Assembly (NCBI GenBank): GCA_039105265.1
Contig: JAPFFF010000028.1
Location: forward strand, 1,897,965-1,961,964
Reading direction: 5' to 3'
Source: Tritrichomonas musculus
Lineage: Eukaryota; Parabasalia; Tritrichomonadida; Tritrichomonadidae
DNA: 64,000 nucleotides
Shown here: positions 17,208 to 63,192 of the stretch, piece by piece
Position numbering within the stretch: position 1 is the first letter of the stretch
Layout of the letters: each line of letters opens with the position of its first letter
The notes under the pieces: generated by a model
The model's input: the letters and a program-made list of their open reading frames with translations, nothing else
Databases searched by the model: none
Told to the model about the DNA's origin: nothing
Translations under genes and position numbers: made by a program

Positions 17208-17281
17208 TCCTCCCTAACTCAGTTGGTTAGAGTGTCAGACTGTTAATCTGGAAGTCGTGTGTTCGATCCACACGGGAGGAG
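17208..17281 (+). tRNA. tRNA-Asn (GTT), anchor of the retrotransposon stack
   Basis: A complete 74-nt cloverleaf with acceptor arms TCCTCCC and GGGAGGA, discriminator G (17281, as usual for eukaryotic Asn), anticodon arm TCAGA-CTGTTAA-TCTGG (anticodon GTT) and T-arm GTGTG-TTCGATC-CACAC. It is followed by A and T9, a full Pol III terminator. All insertions lie after this terminator and the tRNA body with its internal promoter is intact, so the gene should remain functional. It is the only complete tRNA in the stack; later target copies contain only its last 14 bases. Confidence 0.97.
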
Positions 17282-17291
17282 ATTTTTTTTT
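17268..17291 (+). repeat. Target copy 0 (inside tRNA-Asn and its terminator)
   Basis: CCACACGGGAGGAGA followed by T9: the 3' T-arm strand, acceptor strand, discriminator and terminator of the tRNA. It is the left flank of the whole stack and the template of all later copies. Confidence 0.95.
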
Positions 17292-18129
17292 CATTTTTAT
17301 TTTTGAGGTTTTGATTAACTTTAGCTACTTATTCGTGTTCAGCACCTTCTGCTGAGTCGATTGATACCACTCTTTTCGCGTTTTCTCAAAATTTTCAAAA
17401 CTGATTTCAATTATATTAGAACTCATTTCACAAAGTCCGACCACTCGATATATCACTCAGTTATACTACCTTAGTTCATTACAATTTATCAATCTCAGCT
17501 CTTAACGTTATACTTGTCATTCGATCAGAGATATATTCTTTAACCAAAATCTCATTCTTTTACTCTTATGTTATTATTCTCCTCTATCTCATGTTGTTTA
17601 TTCAGATTCCTTCGATCATACTGTCTTATTGACTCTATTTTACATCTTTAATTTGCAGTATTATACGTTATTTATAGACTATACATAGCTCAGATCGAAG
17701 TTAATTTACTCTCTTTGTTATTGGAGTCGCCCTCTTTTATTGAGTCCACTTGATGTTCCTTATCTCTTCCGGGCCCTGAAGAGTACTTGACGGCTGCCGA
17801 TTAAACTTTGACGGATATATATATCCTATTTAAGTTGCTATGGCTCAATGCGTCTATAGACTCAACGGATGGATGCCCATGAGATCCATTCAGACGACGA
17901 TCATATGGCTTTCAATTGTTGATCGTCCATTATTCAATTAATACTCGTTCCCTCTCAATTAATTGAATATTTTTTAATTGTTCTGTTGCTCCTTATGTTC
18001 AAGTTGGTCTCACTTTAAAGGTTTAAGCATACCTTTTTTTCTTACAAAATTGCTTTTTTGATTGAAAGTCTTGCGAACTTTCGCTTCCTTTTTGCTTTTA
18101 TGCATTTCTAACCGCTTTTAATAAACAAT
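17292..18129 (+). mobile_element. S1.1, non-autonomous retroelement (838 bp)
   Basis: Lies exactly between target copies 0 and 1. It starts CATTTTTATTTTTGAGG, giving TCATTTTTA at the junction with the target T-run (initiator-like). A hairpin TCAGCA/TGCTGA at 17339-17355 is followed by CGATTGATACC, as in families A and B. It has no long ORF and no tRNA-like A/B boxes. An 11-bp stem lies at 17932-17942/17958-17968, and GAAAGT/ACTTTC near the 3' end. It ends TTTAATAAACAAT, as family B does, so family B enzymes are the likely helper (inference). Confidence 0.85.
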
Positions 18130-18153
18130 CCACACGGGAGGAGATTTTTTTTT
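18130..18153 (+). repeat. Target copy 1
   Basis: CCACACGGGAGGAGA + T9, identical to copy 0; separates S1.1 and S2.1. Confidence 0.95.
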
Positions 18154-19212
18154 CATTTTTATTTTCGAGGTTTACGCAGGCAATAACTAGATATTCGTAA
18201 TCAGTGCACTGAGCTGATTTGTATGGTGCCCTCAGATCGATGTTTCGTCCGAATTTTCCAAACTGATTTCAATTATATGTAGGGTCACCTCACTAAGTCC
18301 GACCACTGGACTTACCACAATATTATACTGTTGTTTCTTATCTCATATTATCAATCTCAGCTCTTAACGTTATAACTCATACTCAATCAGTTATATGCAA
18401 TTTCAAATATACCTCTCAAAACTTACTCTAATGTTATTATACTCTTCCTTCTCACTTTGTTTATTCCAGTTTCCTTCGATCGCGCCTTTCTGTTCCCTCG
18501 GTTTCCCACTTTTCATGACTCCATTCTCATTTTACAATTTCTCTCAATATTCTCAAATATACAAGGCGTTATACAATATGAAGACGATTCTCACGGACAG
18601 ATCGAAGTAAATTGCTACTTATTTTTACTCTTTTAGTTTATTCTATTTTATATATGGAGTCATCTTTCAGTGAGTCTGCTTGTGATTTCAATGATCACAC
18701 TGCCTTGATGAAAGAATCAAAAGACAGCAGTCAACAAGCGTCTACGGTAAAGGATCTCCGCAAGATGCTGCCTGACACATGTCGCGTGACTCTACTGAAG
18801 GGCGCTCAATGAGCCCGTTCGTTCTCTCATTTAAGTTCTTGTTCAATTGTTTTATCCGTTACTCATTGTTCCTCATTTTCAGATCTCAATCTGATATCCT
18901 CATTTACATTGTTACATTGTTGCATTGTTTCAAGTTCTTTGTTCTTTAGACGAGTTGTTTTACATCAGACTCGGAAACCATCGCTGGTTGTAACACAACC
19001 CGTCCTCAGAATGATCTGTGTTGCTCAATGATCATTTTTTGGCGACCGTTTATTCCAAGTCTGACTCATTACTTGAAGTCTTTTTGGACCTTTTAACTTC
19101 AAGTTTTACCTTTTTCCTTTTATTTTCCTTTTTTTTTCTTAAAGCTTATGCCTAGCTTTTTTTATTAATTGCTTAATCGCAAAACTCTTAAAGCATTTAA
19201 TAAACATTTAAA
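18154..19212 (+). mobile_element. S2.1, non-autonomous retroelement (1059 bp)
   Basis: Begins CATTTTTATTTTCGAGGTTT like S1, shares several blocks with S1 in the 5' half (CCGACCACT, ATCTCAGCTCTTAACGTTAT, CCTTCGATC), then diverges. The 5' hairpin is AATCAGT/GCTGATT at 18199-18219. It carries stems GGTTGT/ACAACC and CTTGAAGT/ACTTCAAG in the 3' half and ends TTTAATAAACATTTAAA. A 52-codon ORF (18654-18812) is present, see findings. No RT or endonuclease is encoded, so it must use helpers. Confidence 0.85.
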
Positions 19213-19236: not shown

Positions 19237-19247
19237 ATTTTGCAAAT

Positions 19248-22200
19248 ATGTTGATCTACCCAACGAAAAGTAGATTTTTGGAATCAGCAGAAGATACTGA
19301 TTCGTTTGATTCCACTCCGGAAAAAATCGGTGAAAATTTTTTTAATAATCGAGATATCATGACCGATAGGTGTCACAATCCTACCCATATTCACAACAGC
19401 AATTGCAATTCCGATAACAAATACGATGGAGGTTTTAAGATTCCTTGTTCTAGGGAACAGATATCCCATCATCCAAAACTCAATAAGTTCGACTTTTTCA
19501 AAGACAATTCGCTACTAGACGACCTTGACTCCTCGTATAAAACAAGATACGCAACTCAAATCTCACCCCGCAAAAAAGATACTAGCAGATATCCTAGTGA
19601 TGATGTGAAGCTGCGGCTCCCGCCGGTTGGACCAGCTTCACAATCACTTTCCAAGTGTCCTGATGACGATATGACCAATTTCAAGCACATTAATTCAGAT
19701 TCAGAAAAAAGTGATAATAGTGATCAAATATCAATTTCCGATGAAGAAATTGAGGAACCTGAAACTATTTTCTGCAATTCAAATAATCCTTCTAGAGGGA
19801 CAGAAGTGCTCTTACAGTCGGGTGTTCACTATAACCCGTCGAATTCTGATGGAGTTCCTAACCCATCATGGATCGTTGTTACGTGCGATCCTTCATTGAT
19901 TTCTCGTTGTCCTCTTGCTTATAATATGAATGAGAAGTCATCCGAAGGAATTCTGGTTGCTCGAGGACAATTGATCATTTCCGATGAGCAACCAAAATTC
20001 GACAGGAATCGACCAGCAATCCCATCAACGGATGAAGAACTTCGTTTAAATGCTTTTGATCCCTATTCTTTCGTTCCTTCGTCTAGCATTCGAACGGTTC
20101 CATTCAATTTTCACTCAAAATGTTCCCCGTTTGCTTCGCATGTGTCCAACATCGTTAATTCGCTCTTTCTCTCAGGAACATGCAACATCGGGTGCAACAC
20201 ATCTCACTTCACCGACATTTCACATCACATGTCATGGAGTTACATCAATAATAATAACTTTTATTTCCTTTCTTCGCAGCACATTGATACGCGTGATATT
20301 GTTAATTCTTACTCACCAAACTCAGCAGCTAATATTAGTAGTCAATCAGCTGGTGCCATCTCTCAACCTGCTGACTCAAACACGTTTGAGAACAACCATG
20401 TTGTGAGTGCTGATACTCACAATGTTGAATCTGTTGCTAATCACGCTGTTGACGTTGACAATCAGATTGTGACAATCAACTGTCAAGTCAACAGCTCACG
20501 TCGCTCATCACGCTGTTGACGTTGACAATCAGACTGTCAAGTCAACAGCTCACGTCGCTCATCACGCTGTTGACGTTGACAATCAGACTGTCAAGTCAAC
20601 AGCTCACGTCGCTCATCACGCAGCTCACGTCGCTGACAATCAGACTGTCAAGTCAACAGCTCACGTCGCTCATCACGCTGTTGACGTTGACAATCAGATT
20701 GTCAAGTCAACAGCTCACGTCGCTCATCACGCTGTTGACGTTGACAATCAGACTGTCAAGTCAACAGCTCACGTCGCTCATCACGCTGTTGACGTTGACA
20801 ATCAGATTGTCAAGTCAACAGCTCACGTCGCTCATCATGCTGTTGACGTTGACAATCAGATTGTCAAGTCAACAGCTCACGTCGCTCATCACGCTGTTGA
20901 CGTTGACAATCAGATTGTCACGTCAACAGCTCACGTCGCTCATCATGCTGTTGACGTTGACAATCAGATTGTCAAGTCAACAGCTCACGTCGCTCATCAT
21001 GCTGTTGACGTTGACAATCAGACTGTCACGTCAACAGCTCACGTCGCTCATCACACTGTTGACGTTGACAATCAGATTGTCAAGTCAACAGCTCACGTCG
21101 CTCATCATGCTGTTGACGTTGACAATCAGACTGTCACGTCAACAGCTCACGTCGCTCACCACAACGTTGACGTTGACAACCAAACCGTCACGTCAACGGC
21201 TCACATCACTCATCACGCTGTTGGCGTCGACGATCGGGTTGTCACGTCAACTGCTCACATCGATCATCATCAAGTAGTCACGAAGGAGAAAGTCATCACT
21301 TCCGTCATCGAAGTGCCTAAGTTCGTCTTCGAGTTCAATGAGAAGGTGGTCCCTTTATTTACTCTCGCAGGTGATCACTCATCATTCAATTCATCCTCTG
21401 ACTCTCGAAGCAATTCATTAGGCACACAGACTTCATCCACTAGTACGAGTAGTACTATTAGTGGTGCAGAAGACTTCTCCGAGGTGCGTTCTCAATCAGA
21501 ACGCACCGATCACTCTGATGATGATGATCGCAACGGTAGTAATGATGGATGTTCTTCACCGTCAAGGGACGATAGGATTTCTATTGAATGGATTGTGGAT
21601 GAGCTGTCCAAAATCAATTCTAAAGCAGAATTGACCTCGCTCATCGACCAACTTCAGGTTGGTAATATTGACATGTCTCCTTTCGCTGATGTTGTTGATG
21701 TAAATGTTCCTATCGTCCTTCTGATGTATCAGAAGTGTAGATGGTTGGGTGTTGGGCAGTTTTATTGCCCTTGTTGCGACAAAACGTTCCCTACATGTGC
21801 CTCGTTATCATTCCACCTGAGGTCGCTGCATGTAACGAATGGGGTTCCAATTGAACAGGCGGCTTTTGAATACATAATTGGTCGTAAGTTAAGATGGAAG
21901 ATTGACTCGCCTCATCTTCCGGCAGATGCTCCACATTATCGGACCATTTACGTTTGTCCTGTGAGTGACTGTAACTATCTTGTGAGTCGGGCGAATTCGT
22001 TGAGCAGCCATATCGGTTCGGCTCATCAGGATCTTGAAGCTCTCAAAAGAGAAGTGGGTGTTTTCTGGGCAATGAACATCCTGCATGCTAGAAGATGCAG
22101 ATGTTTACTTGCAACACGGGATGTCTTTCATGATCTGCGTGGTTCGATGTGTTCAACTTGCAGTGACTTCATTGGAAAAGACAAAGTCACTGTCAAGCAA

Positions 22201-25200
22201 CACTCTAACAGATCTCATCCAGCATCCAACGTTGAAGGTCATCGTTTGCAATCATTCGAGGTGAGTATTTCTACCAAGTGGTTTTCACCCGATACCGATG
22301 ACGATGAGATTCGTGAGGCCAATTCTGACCTTGACAAAGAAAAAAGTGTCAGAATGGAAAATAGGATTTTACAGGAAGAAGAAAGGTTGAATCCTGTGCA
22401 GGCGAGGTCAGATGAGTCTGTTGACCTCCAAGTGATGGAAGATCGACGTCGTGCAGAGGATAACCGCCGACGCAGACGTCAGGCTGGTTCCATTCCAGCC
22501 AATGAGAGAATGCCAGAAGCACGCTTGCACTCAGTCTCTTCTTCAAGTGATGGCGAAGTCATTCAAAGTGATGTACATCCTGGTCATTCAAATTCAGCTT
22601 CGATCGTGGACATTGAGAGTTGCCTGTCCAAAGCTGAGAATTGGAAGTCGAGGTGCATGAAGGAAGATGATGATTTCGTGCACCTCCCGAAGCTGTGGGG
22701 TGACCGTTTAGCGAAGCACAGGAAAAAGTTCGAAGAAGTGTTTAACAGTGAAGTCAAGGATGTTCTCAATTGGTATAATGAAGCTATTAACCTCTCTGAC
22801 TCTTTGGAAAAGAGCAGCCGAATGCTTCTCTGCGAAGGGATGATTTCGAAAATCATTCTCATTCTACGGAAGTCGATTAGGAAGTTCGTTCGTTCGGCAC
22901 GGAGAGGTTCAGATAAGATTCGTCGCCCGCATTCCTTGGAGACACCGATTCAGATGAAGTCGGCCTCCAAATTCATCGCTGGTATTGAACTCCTGCATTC
23001 CCGCATTCACATCACTGATGATGATCTCGATCAACCTCAACGTAATGTCATCGCAGACATCAAAGAGAAGCTTGTTCGCTTTCTGTCACAGGCTCCTTTG
23101 GAGTTCTCTCAACTTCTTGGGAGTGGTGACTTGGACTCAATTGACGGTTTGATTTACGATGAGCATTACGATGAAAGGATGAAATTCATACGTGCCAAGC
23201 TAGAGGAATTGGAGATTCTCAACAACTCTCCTTCCTCGCTTGGCTACAAGAAGTTCCTTCAGAAATTCTACGCTGAAGACGCCAAACGTACACTCGACTG
23301 GTTCGTGTTGAACGACGACACACCGGAATGTGTCGTCCCAGTCGAAGATTTCGAGAACGTGTACGGGTCCTCGTGGAGCGATGCTGCTGCTCTCGGGGAT
23401 GACCCAGATGGTGTTTACACTCTTCAGCGTAGAATTTCATCGAATAATTCTGATGAACTCAAATCACTCATCCTCAACGAAGAAGCTATTCTCAAAGCGG
23501 TCAGATCGAGATCCAATCTGTCTGCCGTCGGATGCGACGGCATTTCAAATGGTGTGTGGAAGGTTGGCGGGAGTGTCACGGCGACGATCATCAAGAATGT
23601 GTTGTGTTGCATGCTTGACACGGGTCTCTTTCCGGAGGTGTTGAAAATGAACAAAACCGTCATGTTGTTTAAGAAAGGAGACCCTGACGACGCCCATTCG
23701 TGGCGTCCTATCACCATCACTCCGACGATTTATCGGATGCTGATGTGTCACATCAGCCGCTCGCTTCAAACGCTGAATTCAAAACATAGGTTCATATCAC
23801 CGAGTCAGAAAGGATTCATGCGTATTCCAGCTGGAGCGGCTGAGCATGCAACTGTGGTTGATGAGATGATACACGATGCTGCACGGAACCAAAAGTCACT
23901 CTACATCACGACGATCGACTTTTCTGATGCATTTGGTTCCGTACCACATAAACTTATTAAAAAGAATCTTACAGACATTGGCTTTGATCTTTCTTTTGTT
24001 AAAACGATTATTAATTCGTACAGAGACTCTTCGACGAAGATCATCAGCAACAACAGACGATCTAATTCTATCTGTTTTCGCAAAGGCGTCAAGCAAGGTT
24101 GTCCGCTGAGTCCGACGTTATTCAACATTTGTATCGAACCTCTCCTCGCGCGGTTGAACGCTTGCAAGGAGGACGGTTATCATTGGTTGGACTCAGCGAC
24201 AACCGTTCAAGCTTACGCCGATGACATAATCGTGTTCTCGGACTCGGAAGTCGGGATGAAGAACTTGCTTTCGGTCGTGGAGCACTTCTGCAGTTATGCA
24301 GGCGACATGAAGATCAACTGCAAGAAGTGCCACGCTTTCACATACATTGCTCACAATGGTTCTCGCAGTGTGTTGAACGACAACTTCACCATTGCTGGAG
24401 GACGTATTGATAACATCAGTATTCAGAACAATACAACGTATCTCGGACTTCCAATCGCGTGCAAATCTTCGCAGCGTAAACATCACGTTTTTCGGCGAAT
24501 CGAAGACATGACGAAGGACGTCATTCGAATTACTGGCAGCGCTCTTCGGTTCACACAGGCGGTTGACGCCATCAAACGGTTCGTGATTCCCAAGATTGAC
24601 TACGAACTGATGGCGAACACAGCACCGACAAATTGCCTCAGTCGCTTAGATGAACTCATTCGGGGCAGGCTGTCCAAAATGATCGGTGCTGCTGGTATTC
24701 CAACCGCCTGGTTCTACACGACGAAAAACGATGGCGGTCTTTACATACAGAAACTCACAGATCGCCAGAAAGCTCTCACTATCAGACTCTACATTGCCTT
24801 GATGGAGTCTAACGATAAAAGCATCCGTGATATGGTCAAGGCTTCTGATGAAGCCGAGATCATCTTCAGGGATGCTACCATCGACTTGACTTCACCGTTC
24901 TTGCACCTGAAAGTTAAAGACAATGGTGCGTTAGATGCAAAGCGTAACCGCGGGACGTCGAACATCTTAGCCCGATGTGTTAAAGCTTTGCACGACGCTA
25001 ACATGGGTCTGATACTCAAAGATGATATGTTTACGCTCAAAGATCTGAATAGTAATGTCACATTTGATGTTAACACCTCTAATGTTGTTAAACACATCAT
25101 GAAAGTCATGAGTGACCGTTACTATTCAGATCTTTGTCAGCACAAGATGAGAGGACATACATTCACGACATTGAAAAACTCACCATTGAGTAACTACTTC

Positions 25201-26262
25201 ATGAAGCCCAATGCTTTGATGGCGGACTCTGTTGTCAGATTCGCTATCAAAGCACGTACGAATACGCTCATGACAGCATCACTTGCTGCTCACAGAAACC
25301 CTCAAATGAGTAACCGTTGCACTCGTTGTGGACAGATTGAAACTCTCAATCACATCTTAAACGGGTGCAAGCGGTGCAAACACAAATTCACAAAGAGACA
25401 CGACGAAGTTGTCAAGGTACTTTGCAAGTACCTTACCGAAAAGAAGAGAGTCATCGTGCATTGTAACCAAAGTGTTCGTGGACGCAGCAACGAACACATC
25501 ACTGGTGACTCTGCTTCTCTCAGACCAGATGTATGGTGGTGGGACGGTGACCAGCTGAAGATAGCTGAATTCACCATCCCATACGGAATGTTATCTGGCG
25601 ATGATGATGAATCCACCTTAGTCATACGACGTAGAGAGAAGTTGAACAAGTACCAGAAGCTCGTCGATGATTGCAAAAACCAGTTGAACTGCAATGTGTC
25701 GCTATTTGTGTTCATTGTCTCCTCCCTCGGTGCAATACCCGATGACACCATCAATGAACTCAAGAAAGTGACAGTCACGACCAAAGACGCACTCAAACTT
25801 GCAGGGAGGATGGTAGCAGCCGCTTTACGTGAATCTATGATATTGTACATTGATACTAAGATTAAGAAGAGGGTTAACGACAACAATGAAGATGAAGATA
25901 ACGATAACGATAATGGTAACGATTATGATAACGATGTTGAAAATGTTAATGTTCTTGATACTGATGGTGACGATGATTCTAATGATCTCAATGATACTAG
26001 CTCCAATGTTACCGACGGGGAGTCCGCAGACGATGAGTACAACTCTGTCAACATCCTGGACGACGAAGAATGGCGGGATCTCATTGATGCAAGTGCGGAT
26101 GTTGACAGGTCGGGCCCCCCGTCTGAGCTTGACACTACTGATGATGAAACTGACGTACTGGAAAATCCAGGCACCACCCCACTATGGAACCAAACTCAAG
26201 GTGCCGACCCTGCCTCCGCTACCGAAGAGGAGGGAGTCCAACACTCCTCTTCTGAATTTTAG
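19248..26262 (+). pseudogene. A1 polyprotein gene, split by a 13-nt insertion in the repeat region
   Basis: The frame starting at ATG 19248 runs to a stop at 20517-20519 (423 codons). The continuation is in the next frame, open from about 20480 to 26262. Compared with the regular 54-nt units, unit one carries 13 extra bases at about 20467-20479, which shifts the frame; a 3-nt irregularity near 20620 does not. The first part holds the N-terminal conserved domain (LLQSGVHYNPSNSDG onward). The second part holds the repeats, three C2H2 fingers, RT with YADD, CCHC knuckle, PD-x12-E endonuclease and acidic tail, all with intact key residues. The copy cannot make the full protein from one frame unless the shift is bypassed. 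Assembly error in the repeat is an alternative. Confidence 0.8.
20439..21264 (+). repeat. A1 hairpin-forming 54-nt coding repeats (15 units)
   Basis: 15 units of 54 nt plus 16 extra bases (13 + 3). Each unit encodes a version of HHAVDVDNQTVKSTAHVA and contains the inverted arms CTGTTGAC...GTCAACAG with inner arms TTGACAAT/ATTGTCAA. Confidence 0.92.
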
Positions 26263-26367
26263 GCAGATTTTTTGTTGGGGCCCGCCCCTTTTATTTTATT
26301 GTGAGTGAATCATCACTCTCGTTTATTAGTATTTTATACTTACTCTAATGATTAATAAACGAATTTA

Positions 26368-26393
26368 CCACACGGGAGGAGATTTTTTTTTTT
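26368..26393 (+). repeat. Target copy 3
   Basis: CCACACGGGAGGAGA + T11; separates A1 and B1. Confidence 0.95.
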
Positions 26394-26407
26394 AGGAATT
26401 TTATTCG

Positions 26408-48217: not shown

Positions 48218-48231
48218 AGGAATTTTATTTG

Positions 48232-54200: not shown

Positions 54201-55320
54201 GAATAGATTAAAAGGACATACTTTCGAAACACTGAAGAATTCTCCTATTAGCAATTTCTACATTTCTCAAAGAGTTAACGCTGCTGATTCTATTGTTAAT
54301 TTTTCATTTAAAGCCAGACTTGGTTCTCTCTTTACAGGCAGTATGAAAAGAAGACAAACTCATAGACAAGATGACGGCAATTGTAAATGTTGTGGACAGA
54401 TCGAAACCATTCACCATTTGCTAAATGGTTGCTCTTATAGAAAACACGAATTTACTAAAAGACACGATGCTATTGCTCTTATTATCAATAAATACATTAC
54501 TGATCATAAACGTGCCATAGTTCATTCTAACCAGGTCGTTCGGAGCCGCGACGGCGGACGACTTGAAGGTGAGAATGCTGATCTTAAACCAGATCTTTTC
54601 TGGTGGAAGAATGACAAATTGCACATCGTTGAAATTACGATTCCTTATGGAATGTTGACTGACGATGATGAACATGGTACAATTTCAACTCTCAATCTTA
54701 GAAGACAACAGAAGTTGAACAAATACAAATCACTCATCGAAGATTGTAAAGTTCAATTCAATTGCGATGTTGATTTCTTTGTAATCGTTGTATCTTCTCT
54801 TGGTGCTATTCCCAGTGAAACGTTAGATGAGTTGAAAAGAATTACTGGTACGGAAGCAGACTGGAAGAAAATAGCAAAGCAAATGGTTATCACATCTTTA
54901 CGCGAATCGATGTTCATTGCTTATCATTGGTATCCTCCTGCACACAACAACATTGTTGTTTCCAACAACCAAACTCATAACTCTACCGACATCTCAGTTA
55001 ATTCTGATAATTCAGTAAACTCTGATGATCAACTTTCCTCTTCTGATATCCAATCTCAATCCGATTATCAGAATTGTTCTATGAATTCCATTGATGATAA
55101 TACTTGGGACCAACTTATCAATGATGACAGTAACCATTCTACTCCTATTATTGATCGTTCTTTTTCGAAAACCTCTACTGATGATTCCTCAGATAGTGAC
55201 AACGATGTCCTTGTTAACTCAGGTTCTGTTCCTTATTGGAGAAAAGTCAATTCAGAGGGAATGATTCTTAATGATGTTTCAGATTTTTCAGATTCTTCAT
55301 CGACTTCTAACTGTGAGTGA
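48232..55320 (+). CDS. Family B retrotransposon protein, copy B2
   Basis: 2362 residues from the ATG at 48232. An in-frame TTG at 48229 precedes it but is not needed, and B1 starts at the equivalent ATG. The domain order is that of B1 with intact fingers, YADD and PD-x12-E. By eye only four residue substitutions separate B1 and B2 (Pro/Ser near residue 69, Val/Ile before the RT fingers, Ala/Val after motif B, Leu/Ile near the knuckle), plus a 36-residue duplication (one pair of 18-residue units). Such closeness argues for very recent transposition or gene conversion. Confidence 0.95.
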   Translation: MFYPTNCIFSESAQRAESIDTAHDDFIDNFYNNRNNISNINSPQIPTNGTSFANDYNSSCQFSKLNHASRHDIQKYLNQRGFDFVNSTTNFDPTIGVEYDRYDLSHRNRPCKCSMLNLGRRTQPIDSFTSPNRSQPPPDIPSPPPNDFADSPNANVNSATSVEEPSEISPTNSTRLHGSEIILQAGIHYNPMIDNHHPNPLWIIVTCDPSLAPHLPLFYKQNNISAEGVLVGRGQFLITNGQPLINSLAPFIPPSEEESASKTVVPSSFLPPDCIPVPPYTFDQNNSQLVQNVAHIFQLTFVNNSTQNVNFNNLFNGNYLCNRTFFNSVLQNIRSSWSFNPTNVFYNFISPTSNPQLQCLPTISGEIPPSLPASVPAPLVALKNEPSPSTATIENHSVDVDFQWLSSKAKVQNHQVEVDHSNLITKAAVQNHTVDVNNQVISSTALVQNHLVDVIKNNLCTQATVQSHAVDVSNQLISSTANVQNHHVDVTQNCLTTQATVQSHAVDVSNQLISSTANVQNHHVDVTQNCLTTQATVQSHAVDVSNQLISSTANVQNHHIDVNSINLLSNATVQNHAVDIENQIISSTAIVQNHQVDVNQSNFISQATVQNHTVDVNNHIISSTANVQSHQVDVNQSKLISQATVQNHAVEVQNQFISSTAHIQNHIVEVVDDTVKTVVHVPKFTVEWKDKEIPLHTLPEDRPLTDKIEKLANAIYLLASSRSCSHTSCGTHSDLTSESDSTISGSDFHSSDFPAQSQNNSDTDLTSSNSSLTSRNSDDGDHNDSNSYSDHDVDLSLQWIIDGLKSIETKVQLVDFLKKVKDAHINFHQFSDVEFFNIPIILYMKKTLRWLGVGQFYCPLCEDVFQSCAALHAHWKFKHGDRFLPNEHAAVEFVYNCKLRWEIIDDDFPSDLPKFRIIHKCPVADCNYIVNNASALACHIKHNHQDLDVLRREIGLLWAAICCHAKHKNKLLTGNDLFHNVSGCLCMRCKHFIGQDKKKVQQHTKSSHPAANVEGSRRYFMNISLNARWLDVDLDDDVISQSNKDIADAVRDLSTHSHNVEIERDLPIEPEGDNPDHAAAMVNRRSREQRLRARRRNGILIVNEGMPEERLHALNGNSDADTTAQSNDDDIQSISPPTSEIQEDLSSFLDKSVSWINKCKEENDGIVYLPKIWGERIQKIRKKISNVFEGKISILIDKFTYLTSNKSLVLSDDDRLLLWNGVLAKIFLILRKEIRGALHIPAFNSKKKKKKKPRSFEVPIQLKAASKFTAGIELLHTLTEGDINDQPTLNLIADLKDKLIDFLSRAPDDFVVLVGGRDIDTVDAILNAGNFEDKLSFLKAKLFDLESKYKENSSDGYKKFIQKAYQEDSKKTLDWFILNSDTPECTVPVESFVEDYGKAWSEVADFEPRQKFTLDHILSDEDNSYFTELLMSDKSIKDAIKSRSNLSAVGCDGICNSIWKLGNDVSTRIIKTTLNVMLSTGSFPSILKSCKTIMLYKKGEVNNTRSWRPITITSTLYRIIMCHISRTLQTLNEYRRFINCQQKGFMKIPSGAAEHIVTADEMIHHAARHQKNLYILTIDFKDAFGSIPHELFKKNLLDLGFDKLFVKSILASYKNASTRIVSNGRISDEIEFAKGVKQGCPLSPTLFNVGIEPLLVKLNDLAQDEGYHWYDRSTSVQAYADDIVLFSDSEMGMNNLIDVVQSFCKYAGNMKINVNKCASFAFTMDNRTRASMQNHFSINGESVKNISIQGSLHYLGLPLAAKLSRRKHHIFQKILDLKRDVSKITSSALRTMQSVDAIKKFILPQLDYELMINAVSTTKLNELDEFIRGRISKKIGIAGVPTDWFYSSKHDGGLNLQCLSERHKALTIRLYMGMHESKDKNVKHFITASDNDEMQFRDADVQDDSPFLHVPVTEFGAIKGNNRCGTSNLLSRTVKALHDLNLQMNHDDTGFSIKPLNTDDEQTEIKVNYMKVMKLIMKVIQKRHISSLLKNRLKGHTFETLKNSPISNFYISQRVNAADSIVNFSFKARLGSLFTGSMKRRQTHRQDDGNCKCCGQIETIHHLLNGCSYRKHEFTKRHDAIALIINKYITDHKRAIVHSNQVVRSRDGGRLEGENADLKPDLFWWKNDKLHIVEITIPYGMLTDDDEHGTISTLNLRRQQKLNKYKSLIEDCKVQFNCDVDFFVIVVSSLGAIPSETLDELKRITGTEADWKKIAKQMVITSLRESMFIAYHWYPPAHNNIVVSNNQTHNSTDISVNSDNSVNSDDQLSSSDIQSQSDYQNCSMNSIDDNTWDQLINDDSNHSTPIIDRSFSKTSTDDSSDSDNDVLVNSGSVPYWRKVNSEGMILNDVSDFSDSSSTSNCE
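49414..50223 (+). repeat. B2 hairpin-forming 54-nt coding repeats (15 units)
   Basis: Exactly 15 x 54 nt; the pair NHHVDVTQNCLTTQATVQ / SHAVDVSNQLISSTANVQ occurs once more than in B1. Confidence 0.95.
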
Positions 55321-55388
55321 GCCATCACTCACGCTTCTTTTATGCACGATTACGTGCTTTCTTACTCTAATGGTTTTTAATAAACAAT

Positions 55389-55412: not shown

Positions 55413-56463
55413 CATTTTTATTTTCGAGGTTTACGCAGGCAATAACTAGATATTCGTAATCAGTGCACTGAACTGATTCGTATGGTGCCCTCAGATCGAT
55501 GTTTCGTCCGAATTTTCCAAACTGATTTCAATTATATGTAGGGTCACCTCACTAAGTCCGACCACTGGACTTACCACAATATTATTCTGTTGTTTCTTAT
55601 CTCATATTATCAATCTCAGCTCTTAACGTTATATCTTATACTCAATCAGTTATATGCAATTTCAAATATACCTCTCAAAACTTACTCTAATGTTATTATA
55701 CTCTTCCTTCTCACTTTGTTTATTCCAGTTTCCTTCGATCGCGCCTTTCTGTTTCCTACTTTTCGTGACTCCATTCTCATTTTACAATTTCTCTCAATAT
55801 TCTCAAATCTACAAGGCGTTATACAGTATGAAGACGATTCTCACGGACAGATCGAAGTAAATTGCTACTTATTTTTTACTCTTTTTGTTTATTCTATTTT
55901 ATATATGGAGTCATCTTTCAGTGAGTCTGCTTGTGATTTCAATGATCACACTGCCTTGATGAAAGAATCAAAAGACAGCAGTCAACAAGCGTCTACGGTA
56001 AAGGATCTCCGCATGATGCTGCCTGACACATGTCTCGTGACTCTACTGAAGGGCGCTCAATGAGCCCGTTCGTTCTATCATTTAAGTTCTTGTTCAATTG
56101 TTTTATCCGTTACTCATCGTTACTCATTGTTCCTCATTTTCAGATCTCAATCTGATATCCTCAATTACATTGTTACATTGTTTCAAGTTCTTTGTTCTTT
56201 AGACGAGTTGTTTTACATCAGACTCGGAAACCATCGCTGGTTGTAACACAACCCGTCCTCAGAATGATCTGTGTTGCTCAATGATCATTTTTTGGCGACC
56301 GTTTATTCCAAGTCTGACTCATTACTTGAAGTCTTTTTGGACCTTTTAACTTCAAGTTTTACCTTTTTCCTTTTATTTTCCTTTTTTTCTTAAAGCTTAT
56401 GCCTAGCTTTTTTTATTAATTGCTTAATCGCAAAACTCTTAAAGCATTTAATAAACATTTAAA
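55413..56463 (+). mobile_element. S2.2, non-autonomous retroelement (1051 bp)
   Basis: Full-length S2 copy. Its 5' hairpin is AATCAGT/ACTGATT, perfectly paired where S2.1 has a G-U pair. A few bases are deleted relative to S2.1 in the CCTCGGTTTCC stretch. Confidence 0.88.
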
Positions 56464-56486
56464 CCACACGGGAGGAGTTTTTTTTT
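56464..56486 (+). repeat. Target copy 9
   Basis: CCACACGGGAGGAG + T9; separates S2.2 and S2.3. Confidence 0.95.
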
Positions 56487-57535
56487 CATTTTTATTTTCG
56501 AGGTTTACGCAGGCAATAACTAGATATTCGTAATCAGTGCACTGAACTGATTCGTATGGTGCCCTCAGATCGATGTTTCGTCCGAATTTTCCAAACTGAT
56601 TTCAATTATATGTAGGGTCACCTCACTAAGTCCGACCACTGGACTTACCACAATATTATTCTGTTGTTTCTTATCTCATATTATCAATCTCAGCTCTTAA
56701 CGTTATATCTTATACTCAATCAGTTATATGCAATTTCAAATATACCTCTCAAAACTTACTCTAATGATATTATACTCTTCCTTCTCACTTTGTTTATTCC
56801 AGTTTCCTTCGATCGCGCCTTTCTGTTCCCTCGGTTTCCCACTTTTCGTGACTCCATTCTCATTTTACAATTTCTCTCAATATTCTCAAATATACAAGGC
56901 GTTATACAGTATGAAGACGATTCTCACGGACAGATCGAAGTAAATTGCTACTTATTTTTACTCTTTTAGTTTATTCATTTTTATATATGGAGTCATCTTT
57001 CAGTGAGTCTGCTTGTGATTTCAATGATCACACTGCCTTGATGAAAGAATCAAAAGACAGCAGTCAACAAGCGTCTACGGTAAAGAATCTCCGCATGATG
57101 CTGCCTGACACATGTCGCGTGACTCTACTGAAGGGCGCTCAATGAGCCCGTTCGTTCTCTCATTTAAGTTCTTGTTCAATTGTTTTATCCGTTACTCATT
57201 GTTCCTCATTTTCAGATCTCAATCTGATATCCTCAACTACATTGTTACATTGTTTCAAGTTCTTTGTTCTTTAGACGAGTTGTTTTACATCAGACTCGGA
57301 AACCATCGCTGGTTGTAACACAACCCGTCCTCAGAATGATCTGTGTTGCTCAATGATCATTTTTTGGCGACCGTTTATTCCAAGTCTGACTCATTACTTG
57401 AAGTCTTTTTGGACCTTTTAACTTCAAGTTTTACCTTTTCCCTTTTATTTCCCTTTTTTTCTTAAAGCTTATGCCTAGCTTTTTTTATTAATTGCTTAAT
57501 CGCAAAACTCTTAAAGCATTTAATAAACATTTAAA
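56487..57535 (+). mobile_element. S2.3, non-autonomous retroelement (1049 bp)
   Basis: Full-length S2 copy directly following S2.2; nearly identical to S2.4. Confidence 0.88.
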
Positions 57536-57558
57536 CCACACGGGAGGAGTTTTTTTTT
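57536..57558 (+). repeat. Target copy 10
   Basis: CCACACGGGAGGAG + T9; separates S2.3 and S1.3. Confidence 0.95.
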
Positions 57559-58397
57559 CATTTTTATTTTTGAGGTTTTGGTTAACTTTAGCTACATATT
57601 CGTGATCAGCACCTTCTACTGAGTCGATTGATACCACTCTTCTCGACTTTTCTCAAAATTTTCAAAACTGATTTCAATTATATTAGAACTCATATCACAA
57701 AGTCCGACCACTCGATATGTCACTCAGTTATACTACCTTAGTTCATTACAATTTATCATTCTCATCTCTTAACGTTATACTTGTCATTCGATCAGATATA
57801 TATTCTTTAACCAAAATCTCATTCTTTTACTCTTATGTTATTATTCTCCTCTCTCTCATGTGGTTTATTCAGATTCCTTCGATCATACTGTCTTATTGAC
57901 TCTATTTTACATCTTTAATTTGCAGTATTTTACGTTATTTATAGACTATACATAGCTCAGATCGAAGTTAATTTACTCTCTTTGTTATTGGAGTCGCCCT
58001 CTTTTATTGAGTCCACTTGATGTTCCTTATCTCTTCCGGGCCCTGAAGAGTGCTTGACGGCTGCCGATTAAACTTTGACGGATATATATATCCTATTTAA
58101 GTTGCTATGGCTCAATGCGTCTATAGACTCAACGGATGGATGCCCATGAGATCCATTCAGACGACGATCATATGGCTTTCAATCGTTGATCGTTCATTAT
58201 TCAATTAATACTCGTTCCCTCTCAATTAATTGAATATTTTTTTAATTGTTCTGTTGCTCCTTATGTTCAAGTTGGTCTCACTTTAAAGGTTTAAGCATAC
58301 CTTTTTTTCTTACAAAATTGCTTTTTTGATTGAAAGTTTTGCGAACTTTCGCTTCCTTTTTGCTTTTATGCATTTCTAACCGCTTTTAATAAACAAT
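57559..58397 (+). mobile_element. S1.3, non-autonomous retroelement (839 bp)
   Basis: Full-length S1 copy, closer to S1.2 than to S1.1 (shares GGTTAACTTTAGCTACATATT). Confidence 0.88.
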
Positions 58398-58421
58398 CCA
58401 CACGGGAGGAGTTTTTTTTTT
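58398..58421 (+). repeat. Target copy 11
   Basis: CCACACGGGAGGAG + T10; separates S1.3 and S2.4. Confidence 0.95.
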
Positions 58422-59469
58422 CATTTTTATTTTCGAGGTTTACGCAGGCAATAACTAGATATTCGTAATCAGTGCACTGAACTGATTCGTATGGTGCCCT
58501 CAGATCGATGTTTCGTCCGAATTTTCCAAACTGATTTCAATTATATGTAGGGTCACCTCACTAAGTCCGACCACTGGACTTACCACAATATTATTCTGTT
58601 GTTTCTTATCTCATATTATCAATCTCAGCTCTTAACGTTATATCTCATACTCAATCAGTTATATGCAATTTCAAATATACCTCTCAAAACTTACTCTAAT
58701 GATATTATACTCTTCCTTCTCACTTTGTTTATTCCAGTTTCCTTCGATCGCGCCTTTCTGTTCCCTCGGTTTCCCACTTTTCGTGACTCCATTCTCATTT
58801 TACAATTTCTCTCAATATTCTCAAATATACAAGGCGTTATACAGTATGAAGACGATTCTCACGGACAGATCGAAGTAAATTGCTACTTATTTTTACTCTT
58901 TTAGTTTATTCATTTTTATATATGGAGTCATCTTTCAGTGAGTCTGCTTGTGATTTCAATGATCACACTGCCTTGATGAAAGAATCAAAAGACAGCAGTC
59001 AACAAGCGTCTACGGTAAAGAATCTCCGCATGATGCTGCCTGACACATGTCGCGTGACTCTACTGAAGGGCGCTCAATGAGCCCGTTCGTTCTCTCATTT
59101 AAGTTCTTGTTCAATTGTTTTATCCGTTACTCATTGTTCCTCATTTTCAGATCTCAATCTGATATCCTCAACTACATTGTTACATTGTTTCAAGTTCTTT
59201 GTTCTTTAGACGAGTTGTTTACATCAGACTCGGAAACCATCGCTGGTTTGTAACACAACCCGTCCTCAGAATGATCTGTGTTGCTCAATGATCATTTTTT
59301 GGCGACCGTTTATTCCAAGTCTGACTCATTACTTGAAGTCTTTTTGGACCTATTAACTTCAAGTTTTACCTTTTTCCTTTTATTTTCCTTTTTTTCTTAA
59401 AGCTTATGCCTAGCTTTTTTATTAATTGCTTAATCGCAAAACTCTTAAAGCATTTAATAAACATTTAAA
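58422..59469 (+). mobile_element. S2.4, non-autonomous retroelement (1048 bp)
   Basis: Full-length S2 copy, nearly identical to S2.3. Confidence 0.88.
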
Positions 59470-59493
59470 CCACACGGGAGGAGTTTTTTTTTT
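59470..59493 (+). repeat. Target copy 12 (last in the stack)
   Basis: CCACACGGGAGGAG + T10; left flank of the family C element. No copy is found to its right. Confidence 0.95.
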
Positions 59494-59505
59494 CGAATTG
59501 CAAAT

Positions 59506-62500
59506 ATGATGTTTTTACCAACAAGAACTAGATATTCGGAATCAGCTCCTTATGCTGATTCCATTGTTACCATCCACGAAGATATTATTGACAAAAATTT
59601 TAATAATCAAAATTATTCTGACAACCTCAACTCAAATCAAAATTTACCTAATCAAAGCTCAAAATCTAGTGATTACAATCATAATTGTCCGCATCCTGAC
59701 CCAAAATGCTCTCATCTCCAAGATATGCAATTATATCTTGATCAGCGAGGTCTTCAATTGGTCGATTCTATCCCTTACTCCGAACCTTCTGATGGCGTAG
59801 AATACGACCATTACGATCTTTCGCACCGGAAACGCACTAACAAATGCTCACTTTTAAATTTGGGCAGAAGGTCTCAGCCTTTTAACAATTTCGCTCCGCC
59901 TATGTGCTCTTCATCTATTCCCGCAAATCATACTTCTCCTACTAACGACTTAGTTGATTCTACGCATACATCGAATATTTCAAATAGCGCTAATACAATT
60001 ACCAATTCTCCTTCGCCTCAATCGAATCTTCTCTGTCCTCATTCCCCTTCTGCAGGCTTATCAGATTCTGCAGATGAACATGATTCCGATCTTATCTCGA
60101 ATAATAGCGATTCTTCTCCGAAAAGACCTACTGGCATTGAAATTCTATTACTTGCTGGTATTCATTACAACCCCGTCGCTAACGACGGTTCTACTAATCC
60201 ACAATGTATTATTGTTACATGTGACCCGGTTCTCTTTAAGTTTGCTCCTTTATTTTACAAGCCAGATAATGGTCCTGCTATTGGTGCCCTGGTGCCTAGA
60301 GGTCAGCTTATTGTCTCTTCTGGACAACCAATTCTTAATAGTTCAGCTCCTTGTATTTACCCTACTCCTGAAGAATCTGCCAATAACCGTTTTGTTCCTT
60401 CTAATATCATTGACTCTCAGTCAATTCCCAAGGAACCTTTCAGTTTTGATACTACCTATGAACCTCAAGATCTGAATCATTTCGTCAATCACATTTCAAA
60501 CATTTTTAATGATATGCATTTACGTTGTTGTTACCAATATAATCATTATAATGTTAATCAAAATAGCGATGTCAAAATTAATTCTTACAATCAATCAAAT
60601 AAAGTTTTTAATATCCTTTTGATGAATCGAAATGTTTCAAACTTTCTCTCGAATTGGTCACAGAATTTTTCAAATACGACCAAAGTTTTCTGCAATGTTA
60701 ATCATTCCGATAAATTTTGCATTCAGTCATTGTTTTCCTCCAATGCATCTGTTGAAAGCCACAGAGTTGATGTTGATAGTTTTTGTACAACATCTAAAGC
60801 CCAGGTTCAGAGTCACGCTTTTGATGTTAATAATCAAGCAATTGCATCAACCGCACTGGTCCAAAACCACTTAGTTGACGTTATTCAAAATAATTTAAGC
60901 ACACAAGCTACAGTTCAGAGTCACGCTGTTGATGTCAGAAATCAGCTGATTTCATCAACAGCTAATGTTCAAAACCACTTAGTTGACGTTATTCAAAATA
61001 ATTTAAGCACACAAGCTACAGTTCAGAGTCACGCTGTTGATGTCAGAAATCAGCTGATTTCATCAACAGCTAATGTTCAAAACCACTCAGTTGACGTTAT
61101 TCAAAATAACTTAAGCACACAAGCTACAGTTCAGAGTCACGCTGTTGATGTCAGAAATCAGCTGATTTCATCAACAGCTAATGTTCAAAACCACTCAGTT
61201 GACGTTATTCAAAATAACTTAAGCACACAAGCTACAGTTCAGAGTCACGCTGTTGATGTCAGAAATCAATTGACTTCTTCTACTGCTAGAGTTGAACATC
61301 ATCATGTCGATGTTTCTGATAAAGTTATTAATTCAATTGTGGAAATACCTAAATATGTTGTTGTTGAAGACAAGGATAAGGTAATACCTCTTTCTACTCT
61401 TGGTGAGGTACCTTCTCTCTCAACTGCTGTCGTTCAGCTCGCTAACAGAATTCTTGAGCTGACGAATAATCTTTCCACTCAGGTTCCAAATTCAAGTTCA
61501 CATACGGAGACTTCTGATTCATCTGTTGTTAGTTATGATGAATTAGATTCTTTATCAGGCTCTGATGGTAATTGTTCCGATAGTAATGGCGATGATCCTA
61601 GTAGTCCACATCGACGAAATGTTAGTCCAAACGATTCGTACTCACTTCAATGGTTAATAGATGAGTTAAAATCTATAAATTGTAAATCTCAACTTAATGA
61701 ATTAATTCTTAAGTTACAGGAAATACATTTTGATCTTAGTCCTTTCACAGAATTACTTTCTATTGAGATGCCAATTATTTTAAAGATGTATGAGACTCAT
61801 AGGTGGCTTGGTGTTGGACAATTTTACTGTCCATATTGTGAAGACACATTTAATTCATGTGCGACTCTTCATGCACATTGGAAATTAAACCATGGTAAAA
61901 GATTTATGCCAAATGAACAAGCAGCTCTTGAATATGTATATAATAGGAAACTTAGATGGAAGATTATTGATGAAGATCTTCCGGATGACATTCCTAAGTA
62001 TAGAATTATTTATAAATGTCCTGATGCTAATTGTAATTATGTTGTCAACAATCCTAATTCTCTTGCCTATCATATTAAATTGAAACATCGTGATATTGAT
62101 GATCTTAGAAGAGAGCTTGGGCTCCTTTGGGCTTCTATTATCTCTTATGCAAAAACCGATCATAAGCTGCTCTCTGGTAAGGATTTATATAATACTAATG
62201 ATGCATGCTTATGTTTGCGTTGCAATCACTTTATAGGTCAAGATAAATGCAAAGTTCAACAGCACTCGATGTCTTCTCATCCTGCTTCAAATGTCGAGGG
62301 TAGTAGAAGATATGATAAGAATATTGTCTTAGTAGCCAAATGGTTCGTTCCTGATTACGATGATGAAACCATTAAAGAAGCTGACGATGATATTGAAAAA
62401 GTTATAAATGCAGGTCACCTGCTTAAACAAAGCACTGAGAATGAGAGAAGAGAACCATCTCATCCTGATGACTCTGATAATCCAGATCATTTAGCAGCCA

Positions 62501-63192
62501 CAATTAGAAGAAGAGCTCAAGAAGATCGTATCAGACAAAGAAGAAGGAGGGGCGATCTCATCGTTAATGAAAGTATGCCTGAAGATCGTCTTCATAGGAA
62601 TCCTATTGATCCTGTTAATTCCGATGATTCTCCTTCTATTAAGAATTATTTAATTGATTCCCACAGTATATCTAACAATGATCCTCCTGATGATCTTCAT
62701 TCTTTCTTTGATAAAGCTTCCTCTTGGATTGACAAATGTGCTGATCAAGAGAAAAACATCATCCATCTACCAAAGATCTGAGGTGACAAACTTCTTAATG
62801 TCAGGAAAAGGTTCTCTAACGTATTTCTTGGAAAAATTTCGATTCTCATTGATAAGTATGACAGAATTGTCAATAATAACAAAGATAATCTTGATGATAA
62901 TGACCGCTCTCTCTTATGGGAAGGTGTCTTATCTAAGATTAATATTATTCTTCGTAAAGAAATCCGCAGCGCCTTACCCATTCACTAGGAAAGGCAAAGT
63001 TGTTAATACTCGCTCCTTCGAGATGCCTATACAATTGAAAGCAGCTACAAAATTCGTAGCTGGTATTGAATTAATCCACAATTTGATATCTAGAGACCGC
63101 GAAGACCAACCTACACATAACTTGATAGCTAATCTCAAAGACAAAATGTTAGTGTTTCTATCCCGTGCTCCTGATGATTTTGTGCAATTCCT
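59506..63192 (+). pseudogene. Family C retrotransposon gene, nonsense and frameshift mutations, RT and endonuclease lost
   Basis: Open from ATG 59506 (a second ATG at 59509) to a TGA at 62779-62781. There the sequence LPKI-stop-GDKL replaces the Trp of the family motif LPK(I/L)WG(E/D). Homology continues in the same frame to a stop near 62986 and then in another frame (RSFEMPIQLKAATKFVAGIEL) until about 63192 (RAPDDFVQF), where A/B continue but this sequence does not. It retains the shared N-terminal domain (ILLLAGIHYNP, PRGQLIVSSGQP), ten 18-residue repeats and three C2H2 fingers near 61830, 62020 and 62220. Closer to family B than A. It cannot encode polymerase or endonuclease. Confidence 0.9.
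60757..61296 (+). repeat. Family C hairpin-forming 54-nt coding repeats (10 units)
   Basis: 10 x 54 nt in alternating pairs as in family B. Stem example at 60925-60962: GCTGTTGATG/CATCAACAGC with inner TCAG/CTGA. Confidence 0.92.

What the first reader, a model, noticed from the sequence alone, without database searches (positions are those of the whole stretch)
17208..63192. A 46-kb head-to-tail stack of 13 retroelements on the 3' side of a single tRNA-Asn gene
Seen: five element families (A, B, C autonomous; S1, S2 non-autonomous), all in the same orientation as tRNA-Asn(GTT), are separated by 23-26 bp copies of the tRNA 3' end plus terminator. The proteins have C2H2 fingers, YADD reverse transcriptase, CCHC knuckle and PD-x12-E endonuclease. 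Known: RLE-type elements (R2, NeSL, R4, CRE) insert at fixed sites such as rDNA or spliced-leader genes, while well-known tRNA-flank specialists such as Dictyostelium TRE elements use APE endonucleases. Inference: this is an RLE lineage specialised for the Pol III terminator region of a tRNA gene, a safe-haven strategy that leaves the tRNA intact.
Basis: partly seen in the sequence, partly recalled or inferred. Interest (0 to 1): 0.9.

Follow-up and report, generated by a model that had tools for sequence, protein, structure and literature searches.

The report
Jumping genes stacked behind tRNA genes
In the genome of a likely trichomonad protist, R2-like jumping genes lie head to tail behind tRNA-Asn genes, and relatives sit at the same point of tRNA-Met, tRNA-Ala and tRNA-Arg genes; each probably inserted by a staggered cut that would leave the tRNA gene whole and recreate its own landing site.

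Summary
In detail: 12 complete elements and one 3'-truncated element follow tRNA-Asn(GTT) in one orientation, separated by 23-26 bp copies of CCACACGGGAGGAG[A/T]T(8-11). The protein is R2-type (RT, CCHC knuckle, PD-x12-E nuclease); R2 structures are the best matches by sequence and fold. Genome-wide the target with T-run occurs 285 times (reversed control 0) and the element/target junction 253 times. Of 108 A/C-type 3' ends 100 are listed: 99 on the target (six on its GGGAAGAG variant), one near-cognate. The finding is wider than described: related families sit at the same point of tRNA-Met(CAT), tRNA-Ala(TGC), tRNA-Arg(TCT) and a fifth tRNA-like target. tRNA-Asn genes ending GGGAAGAG are mostly spared: 3 of 19 with elements against 25 of 30 ending GGGAGGAG (four unresolved). 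TPRT with a staggered cut that keeps the tRNA and remakes the target is inferred. RLE elements specific for tRNA genes were already in print (Kojima & Jurka 2015), so this is a new variant of a known kind.

The parts
17207..17282 (+). tRNA-Asn(GTT), the gene the stack follows; target copy 1 (24 bp) at 17268-17291 is its 3' end plus T-run
   Evidence: ARAGORN, Rfam RF00005, scripts
17292..18129 (+). element 1, S1 (non-autonomous)
   Evidence: longest frame 70 codons
18130..18153 (+). target copy 2 (24 bp)
18154..19212 (+). element 2, S2 (non-autonomous)
   Evidence: longest frame 86 codons
19213..19236 (+). target copy 3 (24 bp)
19237..26367 (+). element 3, autonomous A; frame split (435 + 1929 codons)
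26368..26393 (+). target copy 4 (26 bp)
26394..33456 (+). element 4, autonomous B; open frame of 2330 codons
33457..33480 (+). target copy 5 (24 bp)
33481..40409 (+). element 5, autonomous C; open frame of 2273 codons
40410..40434 (+). target copy 6 (25 bp)
40435..47329 (+). element 6, autonomous C; open frame of 2261 codons
44637..45410 (+). reverse transcriptase (RVT_1) of element 6, YADD at 45171-45182
   Evidence: Pfam E 9.4e-35; read back; fold like R2
46275..46325 (+). CCHC knuckle of element 6 (C-x2-C-x7-H-x4-C)
   Evidence: invariant columns C698 C701 H709 C714; read back
46482..46526 (+). restriction-like endonuclease core PD-x12-E of element 6
   Evidence: invariant P767 D768 E781; read back from the D on; strands and helices of the model
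47330..47353 (+). target copy 7 (24 bp)
47354..48193 (+). element 7, S1
48194..48217 (+). target copy 8 (24 bp; from here on GGAGT in place of GGAGA)
48218..55388 (+). element 8, autonomous B; open frame of 2366 codons
55389..55412 (+). target copy 9 (24 bp)
55413..56463 (+). element 9, S2
56464..56486 (+). target copy 10 (23 bp)
56487..57535 (+). element 10, S2
57536..57558 (+). target copy 11 (23 bp)
57559..58397 (+). element 11, S1
58398..58421 (+). target copy 12 (24 bp)
58422..59469 (+). element 12, S2
59470..59493 (+). target copy 13 (24 bp)
59494..63192 (+). element 13, autonomous type D, 3' part missing, frame at 59461 closed after codon 1106

Best explanation
The stack is a set of R2-type (restriction-like endonuclease) non-LTR retrotransposons that sit directly behind tRNA-Asn, and each most likely got there by target-primed reverse transcription at a fixed point of the tRNA gene. 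Shown: each of the 12 complete elements in the window is flanked on both sides by a 23-26 bp repeat that starts near the 3' end of the T loop and ends at the end of the T-run; the first copy belongs to the intact tRNA gene; relatives at tRNA-Met, tRNA-Ala and tRNA-Arg have the same geometry. Inferred: the bottom strand is nicked at the left end of that repeat, at the 3' end of the B box, and primes cDNA synthesis from the element RNA; the top strand is cut about 24 bp further on, behind the terminator. The non-autonomous S1 and S2 are presumably mobilised in trans. Specificity is most likely read from DNA sequence by the element's own zinc fingers or Myb domains, because the families examined keep to one tRNA kind each and a tRNA-Asn variant is largely spared. 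Block duplication then lengthens some stacks.
For: Repeats and intervals. 285 exact target+T-run copies, control 0; 30 perfect tRNA-Asn ends; 253 junctions AATAAAC-N(3-12)-target, control 0. 99 of 100 listed A/C-type 3' ends (108 in all) on CCACACGGGA[G/A]GA, 50 of 50 readable S2 3' ends (69 in all) on CCACACGGGA. R2 chains best by sequence (9nl3, E 4.7e-55) and by fold (model mean pLDDT 87.5); CCHC and PD..E residues invariant in element 6 and 27 metagenome relatives and present in the Met, Ala, Arg and fifth families with other spacing. Of 11 upstream flanks fetched for 11 loci outside the Asn stacks (C8's in two pieces), 10 hold a tRNA gene with an element start directly behind its T-run: Met in L009, L014, L016, L018, L020, L028; Ala in L013, L026; Arg in L022 and, by sequence, L024. 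Apparently single insertions with a repeat on both sides at Ala (C2: L026, L027) and Arg (C29: L022, L023). Junction counts Met 22, Ala 13, Arg 3, controls 0. Prediction made and met: the fifth family's target AGTCCGCGAAGTCCCA should follow TTCG(A) of a T loop; TTCGAGTCCGCGAAGTCCCA with up to one mismatch occurs 105 times, control 0. Empty site: L049 has tRNA-Asn, T9 and no element. GGGAAGAG class: 13 copies beyond its 19 genes, against 253 junctions for 30 GGGAGGAG genes.
Against: No transcript, nicking or retrotransposition data. Direction of growth not shown: frames are not more decayed away from the tRNA (15 stacks, p = 0.29). Some stacks have no tRNA-Asn gene within one mismatch in the list: C19 (12 target copies) and C66, which begins inside a stack. 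The eleventh upstream flank (L012, C12) is stack interior and shows no tRNA. The GGGAAGAG class is not immune (13 target copies, 10 of them on C14). S1 shares no 3' sequence with A, B or C beyond AATAAAC, and S2 only a short motif, so trans-mobilisation is a guess. Exact periods on C58, C16, C8 and C65/C129/C406 suggest that some copies come from duplication of blocks. In the window the two C copies are neighbours, as duplication would give.
Confidence: 0.85

Rival explanations
1. The stack grew mainly by tandem duplication (unequal exchange between target copies or elements) after few insertions.
For: Exact recurring periods elsewhere: 22,976 bp on C58, 7,338 bp on C16, 10,094 bp on C8, 13,247 bp on C65/C129/C406 (positions). 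In the window the two C copies (5 and 6) are neighbours and 98.0% alike.
Against: Six kinds are interleaved in the window, and other neighbours are not the closest pairs: S2 copies 9 and 10 are adjacent at 97.0%, while 10 and 12 are 99.3%; the B copies 4 and 8 lie far apart at 95-99%. Apparently single insertions with a repeat on both sides exist at Ala and Arg.
Confidence: 0.15
2. Integration is steered by the Pol III transcription apparatus on the tRNA gene rather than by DNA sequence.
For: tRNA genes of different sequence are hit at the same structural point, next to the B box and terminator.
Against: On the RT tree the Asn, Met, Ala and Arg rows each form one group; the three other tRNA genes of the window (Glu, a different Met, Lys; first T-runs 7, 5 and 3) have no element behind them; the GGGAAGAG tRNA-Asn class is largely spared, though it may differ in its T-run too.
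Confidence: 0.15
3. The tRNA tail is part of the element's own 3' end, carried along, and the arrays form by homologous recombination with tRNA genes.
For: 3' ends are nearly always followed by the target; the gene at C10:912170 looks like a hybrid of the two tRNA-Asn classes, so exchange probably happens.
Against: Apparently single insertions at Ala and Arg carry the repeat on both sides; flanking repeats end at the T-run and not further into the element or the gene.
Confidence: 0.06
4. Assembly artefact.
For: Highly repetitive region; no reads available here.
Against: Copies of one kind differ by 1-9%, and the pattern recurs at many loci on contigs of up to several megabases.
Confidence: 0.03

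Closest known systems
NeSL-1_TV (tRNA-Pro specific), LIN15_SM (tRNA-Arg) and LIN25_SM (tRNA-Glu); Kojima & Jurka 2015, PMC4640811 (section 10 read; passages)
   Same: Non-LTR retrotransposons of the RLE kind specific for a tRNA gene. I take TV as Trichomonas vaginalis by Repbase naming (recalled; the name Trichomonas does not occur in the main text); the host here looks like a trichomonad too.
   Different: Here Asn, Met, Ala, Arg and a fifth target in one genome, long head-to-tail stacks, non-autonomous partners and a spared tRNA-Asn class. Where in the tRNA NeSL-1_TV inserts is in their S6 Fig, which I could not see.
R2 (28S rDNA)
   Same: RT-knuckle-RLE half is the closest solved structure; Myb domains upstream in Met, Ala and fifth families, as in R2 (recalled).
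   Different: Target is tRNA 3' ends, not 28S rDNA; repeats of 23-26 bp would regenerate the target, whereas R2 insertion disrupts the 28S gene (recalled).
Utopia / NeSL clade (U2 snRNA, spliced leader)
   Same: Small-RNA-gene specific RLE elements; reptile Utopia makes 20 bp target duplications and Utopia-1_NVit is occasionally inserted in tandem (PMC4640811 passages).
   Different: Different target; no Ulp1-like protease found in the proteins and protein parts scanned; clade membership not tested.
Dictyostelium TRE5-A (PMC5391098, listing and start of abstract only)
   Same: Non-LTR elements that settle beside tRNA genes as a safe place (recalled beyond the listing).
   Different: APE endonuclease and position beside any tRNA gene (recalled); here RLE, a fixed junction, and one tRNA kind per family.

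Membership tests
RLE-type non-LTR retrotransposon (R2 group in the wide sense) | R2-like RT followed by CCHC knuckle and C-terminal restriction-like endonuclease | tested here: met
RLE-type non-LTR retrotransposon (R2 group in the wide sense) | no APE endonuclease | tested here: met
   no such Pfam domain in the Asn B, C and D proteins or in the N-terminal parts scanned of Met, Ala, Arg and the fifth family (partial proteins)
RLE-type non-LTR retrotransposon (R2 group in the wide sense) | precise 3' junction at a fixed target | tested here: met
   253 junctions; 99 of 100 listed A/C ends and 50 of 50 readable S2 ends on target
RLE-type non-LTR retrotransposon (R2 group in the wide sense) | mobility by target-primed reverse transcription | not testable with these tools
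   needs biochemistry
NeSL clade | place on an RT tree with NeSL, Utopia, R5 references | not tested
   no reference sequences held; the tree holds only own families and metagenome relatives
NeSL clade | target is a spliced leader or U2 gene (not universal in the clade) | tested here: not met
   targets are tRNA 3' ends
R2 (strict) | insertion in 28S rDNA | tested here: not met
tRNA-specific RLE elements (NeSL-1_TV, LIN15_SM, LIN25_SM) | insertion in a tRNA gene | tested here: met
tRNA-specific RLE elements (NeSL-1_TV, LIN15_SM, LIN25_SM) | same point of insertion within the tRNA | not testable with these tools
   their S6 Fig is a supplement, not readable here
TRE elements | APE endonuclease and variable distance from any tRNA gene (recalled) | tested here: not met
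   RLE; fixed junction

The most novel reading that the evidence does not exclude
One RLE lineage has moved from tRNA kind to tRNA kind within a single protist genome while keeping its cut at the same structural point (end of T loop to terminator), a point that spares the gene and remakes the target without end; the host keeps a second tRNA-Asn gene set whose acceptor stem has a compensated base-pair change (C3-G70 to U3-A70) and so escapes, a tRNA-gene arms race written in the isodecoders.
Probability: 0.4. Interest if true: 0.85.

Novelty: new variant of a known kind. Interest (0 to 1): 0.7.

Why it matters
It gives a natural series of related RLE proteins that use different tRNA genes at the same structural point, with hundreds of insertions as a read-out: material for learning how R2-type proteins choose DNA and how that choice changes. 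A cut that keeps the gene and remakes the site would explain how one locus can be loaded with a dozen copies without cost to the tRNA. The two tRNA-Asn classes offer a ready natural variant of the target. Insertion behind tRNA genes might also be of use as a tool.

Tried and rejected
Direction of growth: if new elements always enter next to the tRNA, distal copies should be more decayed; 15 stacks, 70 frames (read, which scores 150 of 198 candidates, and for element 8), frames under 2,150 codons taken as broken, one-sided p = 0.29, and 0.47 without C58. No support. The A/T state behind the discriminator looks polar in several stacks (T at the far end on C1, C3, C6, one C27 stack and the window); I made no test of it.

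5' ribozyme: no Rfam family other than the four tRNAs in the window (gathering thresholds).

Host by protein names: the kelch protein beside the stack gave distant hits, the named ones fungal but for one EukProt entry. The tubulins were used instead.

Prior reports: the searches gave Kojima & Jurka 2015 as the one paper in which I saw RLE elements specific for tRNA genes; I opened only that paper and PMC12041511. (Parabasalia or Tritrichomonas with tRNA terms) listed no paper. The library lacks most subscription papers.

Long reads: not available.

Rows left out: P0031 dropped from the tree as a short match; the tree used 12 of the 20 RT loci, two window elements and 31 of 32 near metagenome relatives. 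Of the 30 perfect tRNA-Asn genes four on C5 stay unresolved and C8:5464136 is empty. The count of 25 is mine, from positions; one search lists 19 of the 30 genes and takes the totals as typed. The Fisher test 25/26 against 0/11 leaves out the four C5 genes and the eight C14 variant genes; the test 25/30 against 3/19 leaves out none of these. The two CGTGAGG genes are in neither.


Full report
WHERE IT IS. The window is contig C28:1897965-1961964 of a 193.4 Mb genome in 746 contigs. The one alpha- and the one beta-tubulin gene fetched have a single open frame each, and their best PDB match by a wide margin is 9D5N (beta 1001.8 bits against 858.1 for the next; alpha 1014.8 against 938.9), which is the doublet microtubule of Trichomonas vaginalis (PMC12041511, passages read). 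The proteins differ from it at a number of positions, so I take the host as a trichomonad other than T. vaginalis; the species is not established.

THE OBSERVATION. tRNA-Asn(GTT) at 17207-17282 is followed by 13 intervals in the same orientation, separated by copies of CCACACGGGAGGAG[A/T]T(8-11), 23-26 bp. Twelve are complete; the last is cut at 63192. Kinds: S1 x3, S2 x4, A, B x2, C x2, and D, the truncated one. A and C share about 5.8 kb at 91%; D is 71-79% like B in parts. S1 and S2 have no long frame (70 to 173 codons).

THE PROTEIN. Pfam finds RVT_1 in B and C (E 1.1e-31 and 9.4e-35). Sequence search of PDB gives R2 proteins first (9nl3, E 4.7e-55). An AlphaFold2 model of residues 1250-2150 of element 6, on an alignment of 28 sequences, has mean pLDDT 87.5; Foldseek puts seven R2 chains first, above LINE-1 ORF2. 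In those 28 sequences (element 6 and 27 metagenome relatives) the residues of C..C..H..C and PD..E are invariant and the Y of YADD nearly so. In the Asn elements the spacing is C-x2-C-x7-H-x4-C and PD-x12-E; the Met, Ala, Arg and fifth families keep the residues with wider spacing, PD-x(14-18)-E, and Arg reads FADD. Metagenomes hold near relatives: of 59 hits, 32 (P0004-P0035) are 30-69% identical, some with a ubiquitin hydrolase domain (P0027, P0029, P0030; P0027 checked).

GENOME-WIDE, ASN. The target with N and five Ts occurs 285 times, reversed control 0. tRNA-Asn 3' ends: 30 perfect; with one mismatch 21 more, of which 19 read GGGAAGAG and 2 read CGTGAGG. Junctions AATAAAC-N(3-12)-CCACACGGGAGGAG: 253, control 0. 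For off-target copies I searched the 3' end without the target: 108 A/C-type ends, 100 listed, 93 on CCACACGGGAGGA, six on CCACACGGGAAGA and one on CCGCACGGGATGA at C1:898239; 69 S2 ends, letters shown for 50, all 50 on CCACACGGGA. The patterns are exact, so diverged copies are not counted.

OTHER TRNA GENES. I fetched the flanks of 11 RT loci outside the Asn stacks (twenty 10-kb stretches). Of the 11 upstream flanks (12 stretches, C8 having two), 10 hold a tRNA gene with an element start directly behind its T-run, in the element's orientation: Met(CAT) in L009, L014, L016, L018, L020, L028; Ala(TGC) in L013, L026; Arg(TCT) in L022; and in L024 a tRNA-Arg-like sequence that ARAGORN did not call. 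The eleventh (L012, C12) is stack interior. Two further tRNA genes turned up: L010 has a second tRNA-Ala followed by a sequence like the start of the Ala element, L019 a tRNA-Met followed by one that resembles the Met element loosely; neither was followed. The 3' junction copies begin at GTCACGCC (Met), ATCCTCC (Ala), ATTCCAGC (Arg) and CCACACGG (Asn), all within about three nucleotides of the end of the T loop (tRNA numbering mine; ends are blurred by one or two ambiguous bases). Junction counts are 22, 13 and 3, controls 0. A fifth family on C12 has the target AGTCCGCGAAGTCCCAAATT-T-run. I predicted a T loop in front of it; TTCGAGTCCGCGAAGTCCCA with up to one mismatch occurs 105 times, control 0, one of them at C12:755971, upstream of that stack. 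I have not read the rest of that gene.

RELATIONSHIP. On an RT-RLE tree of 45 proteins the labelled rows form one group per target (Asn 6, Met 3 and Arg 2 with full support; Ala 2 identical rows), in three changes, the least possible. Many rows are near copies of each other, and unlabelled metagenome rows, whose targets are unknown, lie inside the Asn group; the fifth family stands beside Met with weak support. Asn against Met, Ala and Arg families is 30-33% identical, against the fifth 29%. All six autonomous 3' ends compared (Asn A, Asn B, Met, Ala, Arg, fifth), and S2, carry ACTCT[A/T]A 13-25 nt before [A/T]TAAAC; S1 and one Met-site element do not: 7 of 9, against about 0.06 expected per tail. 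I chose that motif after seeing the ends. The predicted fold of the last 120 nt is more stable than shuffles for A and B (z -3.1 and -2.6), less so for S1 and S2 (-2.2, -1.8). Myb domains are found in Met, Ala and the fifth family, not in the Asn proteins or the N-terminal part of Arg.

THE SPARED CLASS. Full sequences are in hand for 13 tRNA-Asn genes. The window's gene, L049 and L058 have acceptor pair 3-70 C-G and a T9 run; nine fetched GGGAAGAG genes have U-A there and ATTTTTTG behind the gene; C10:912170 (L050) has U3 with G70 and T9 (pair numbering mine). For the other genes only the 3' end is known. All nine fetched GGGAAGAG genes have no element behind them; two more outside C14 have no target copy near them in the complete list; of eight on C14, three have elements by position. 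Of 30 GGGAGGAG genes 25 have an element by position or sequence, one is empty (L049) and four on C5 are unresolved. Fisher p = 4e-6 for 25/30 against 3/19. Beyond the genes the GGGAAGAG class has 13 further target copies, the GGGAGGAG class 253 junctions. Against a simple reading: the genes are not independent (C14 and C5 are clusters), the T-run differs too, 13 copies show that the class can be entered, and L050, with the front of one class and the back of the other and an element behind it, suggests exchange between classes. Sparing is a correlation.

MECHANISM. Shown: geometry, repeats, target fidelity, protein kind. Inferred: nick order, TPRT, recognition by the element's own fingers or Myb domains, trans-mobilisation of S1 and S2. 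Growth by insertion is favoured in the window because kinds are interleaved and most neighbours are not the closest relatives, the two C copies being the exception; exact periods point to block duplication elsewhere.

AGAINST. No direction of growth could be shown. C19 has twelve target copies and no tRNA-Asn gene within one mismatch listed. No reads, no expression, no biochemistry.

KNOWN OR NEW. Kojima & Jurka 2015 (PMC4640811; section 10 read, passages, supplements not seen) report NeSL-1_TV as tRNA-Pro specific and two planarian LIN families as tRNA-Arg and tRNA-Glu specific; the place of NeSL-1_TV on their tree had no strong support. That TV stands for T. vaginalis is recalled. So RLE elements in tRNA genes are known. 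What I did not find in print (searches, mostly judged from listings) is one genome with a lineage spread over several tRNA kinds at one structural point, stacks of this size, and a spared isodecoder class.

Noticed in passing
C10:3187542-3240607 and contigs C115, C158, C185, C252, C270, C541 and others: TTCGAGTCCGCGAAGTCCCA recurs at steps of mostly 3,557 or 3,607 bp: a long tandem array holding what looks like a tRNA gene. Not read.
   Followed up: no
window 20400-21400, 34470-35420, 41430-42150 (54-nt unit); 27588-28319, 49412-50251, 60701-61324 (108-nt unit): Tandem repeats inside the long frames of the autonomous elements (18- or 36-residue units such as HAVDVDNQIVKSTAHVAH), upstream of the fingers; they recur in A, B, C and D.
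   Followed up: partly
P0027, P0029, P0030 (metagenome relatives): R2-type proteins with a ubiquitin carboxyl-terminal hydrolase domain upstream of the RT (P0027 checked).
   Followed up: partly
L010:9632-9703: A second tRNA-Ala(TGC) sequence followed by a stretch like the start of the Ala element: perhaps another Ala-type family or an old copy.
   Followed up: no
C1:898239-898273: One A/C-type 3' end on a near-cognate site CCGCACGGGATGA, possibly another tRNA; could not be read further.
   Followed up: no
C19:1658803-1743565: Twelve Asn target copies with no tRNA-Asn gene within one mismatch on that contig.
   Followed up: no
C5:5556558-5595552: Eight perfect tRNA-Asn genes in both orientations within 40 kb and few elements; mirrored spacings suggest inverted duplications.
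   Followed up: no
C65, C76, C129, C406, C522: Ala-family copies at a period of 13,247 bp, about 3 kb longer than the 10,167 bp step seen once on C65.
   Followed up: no
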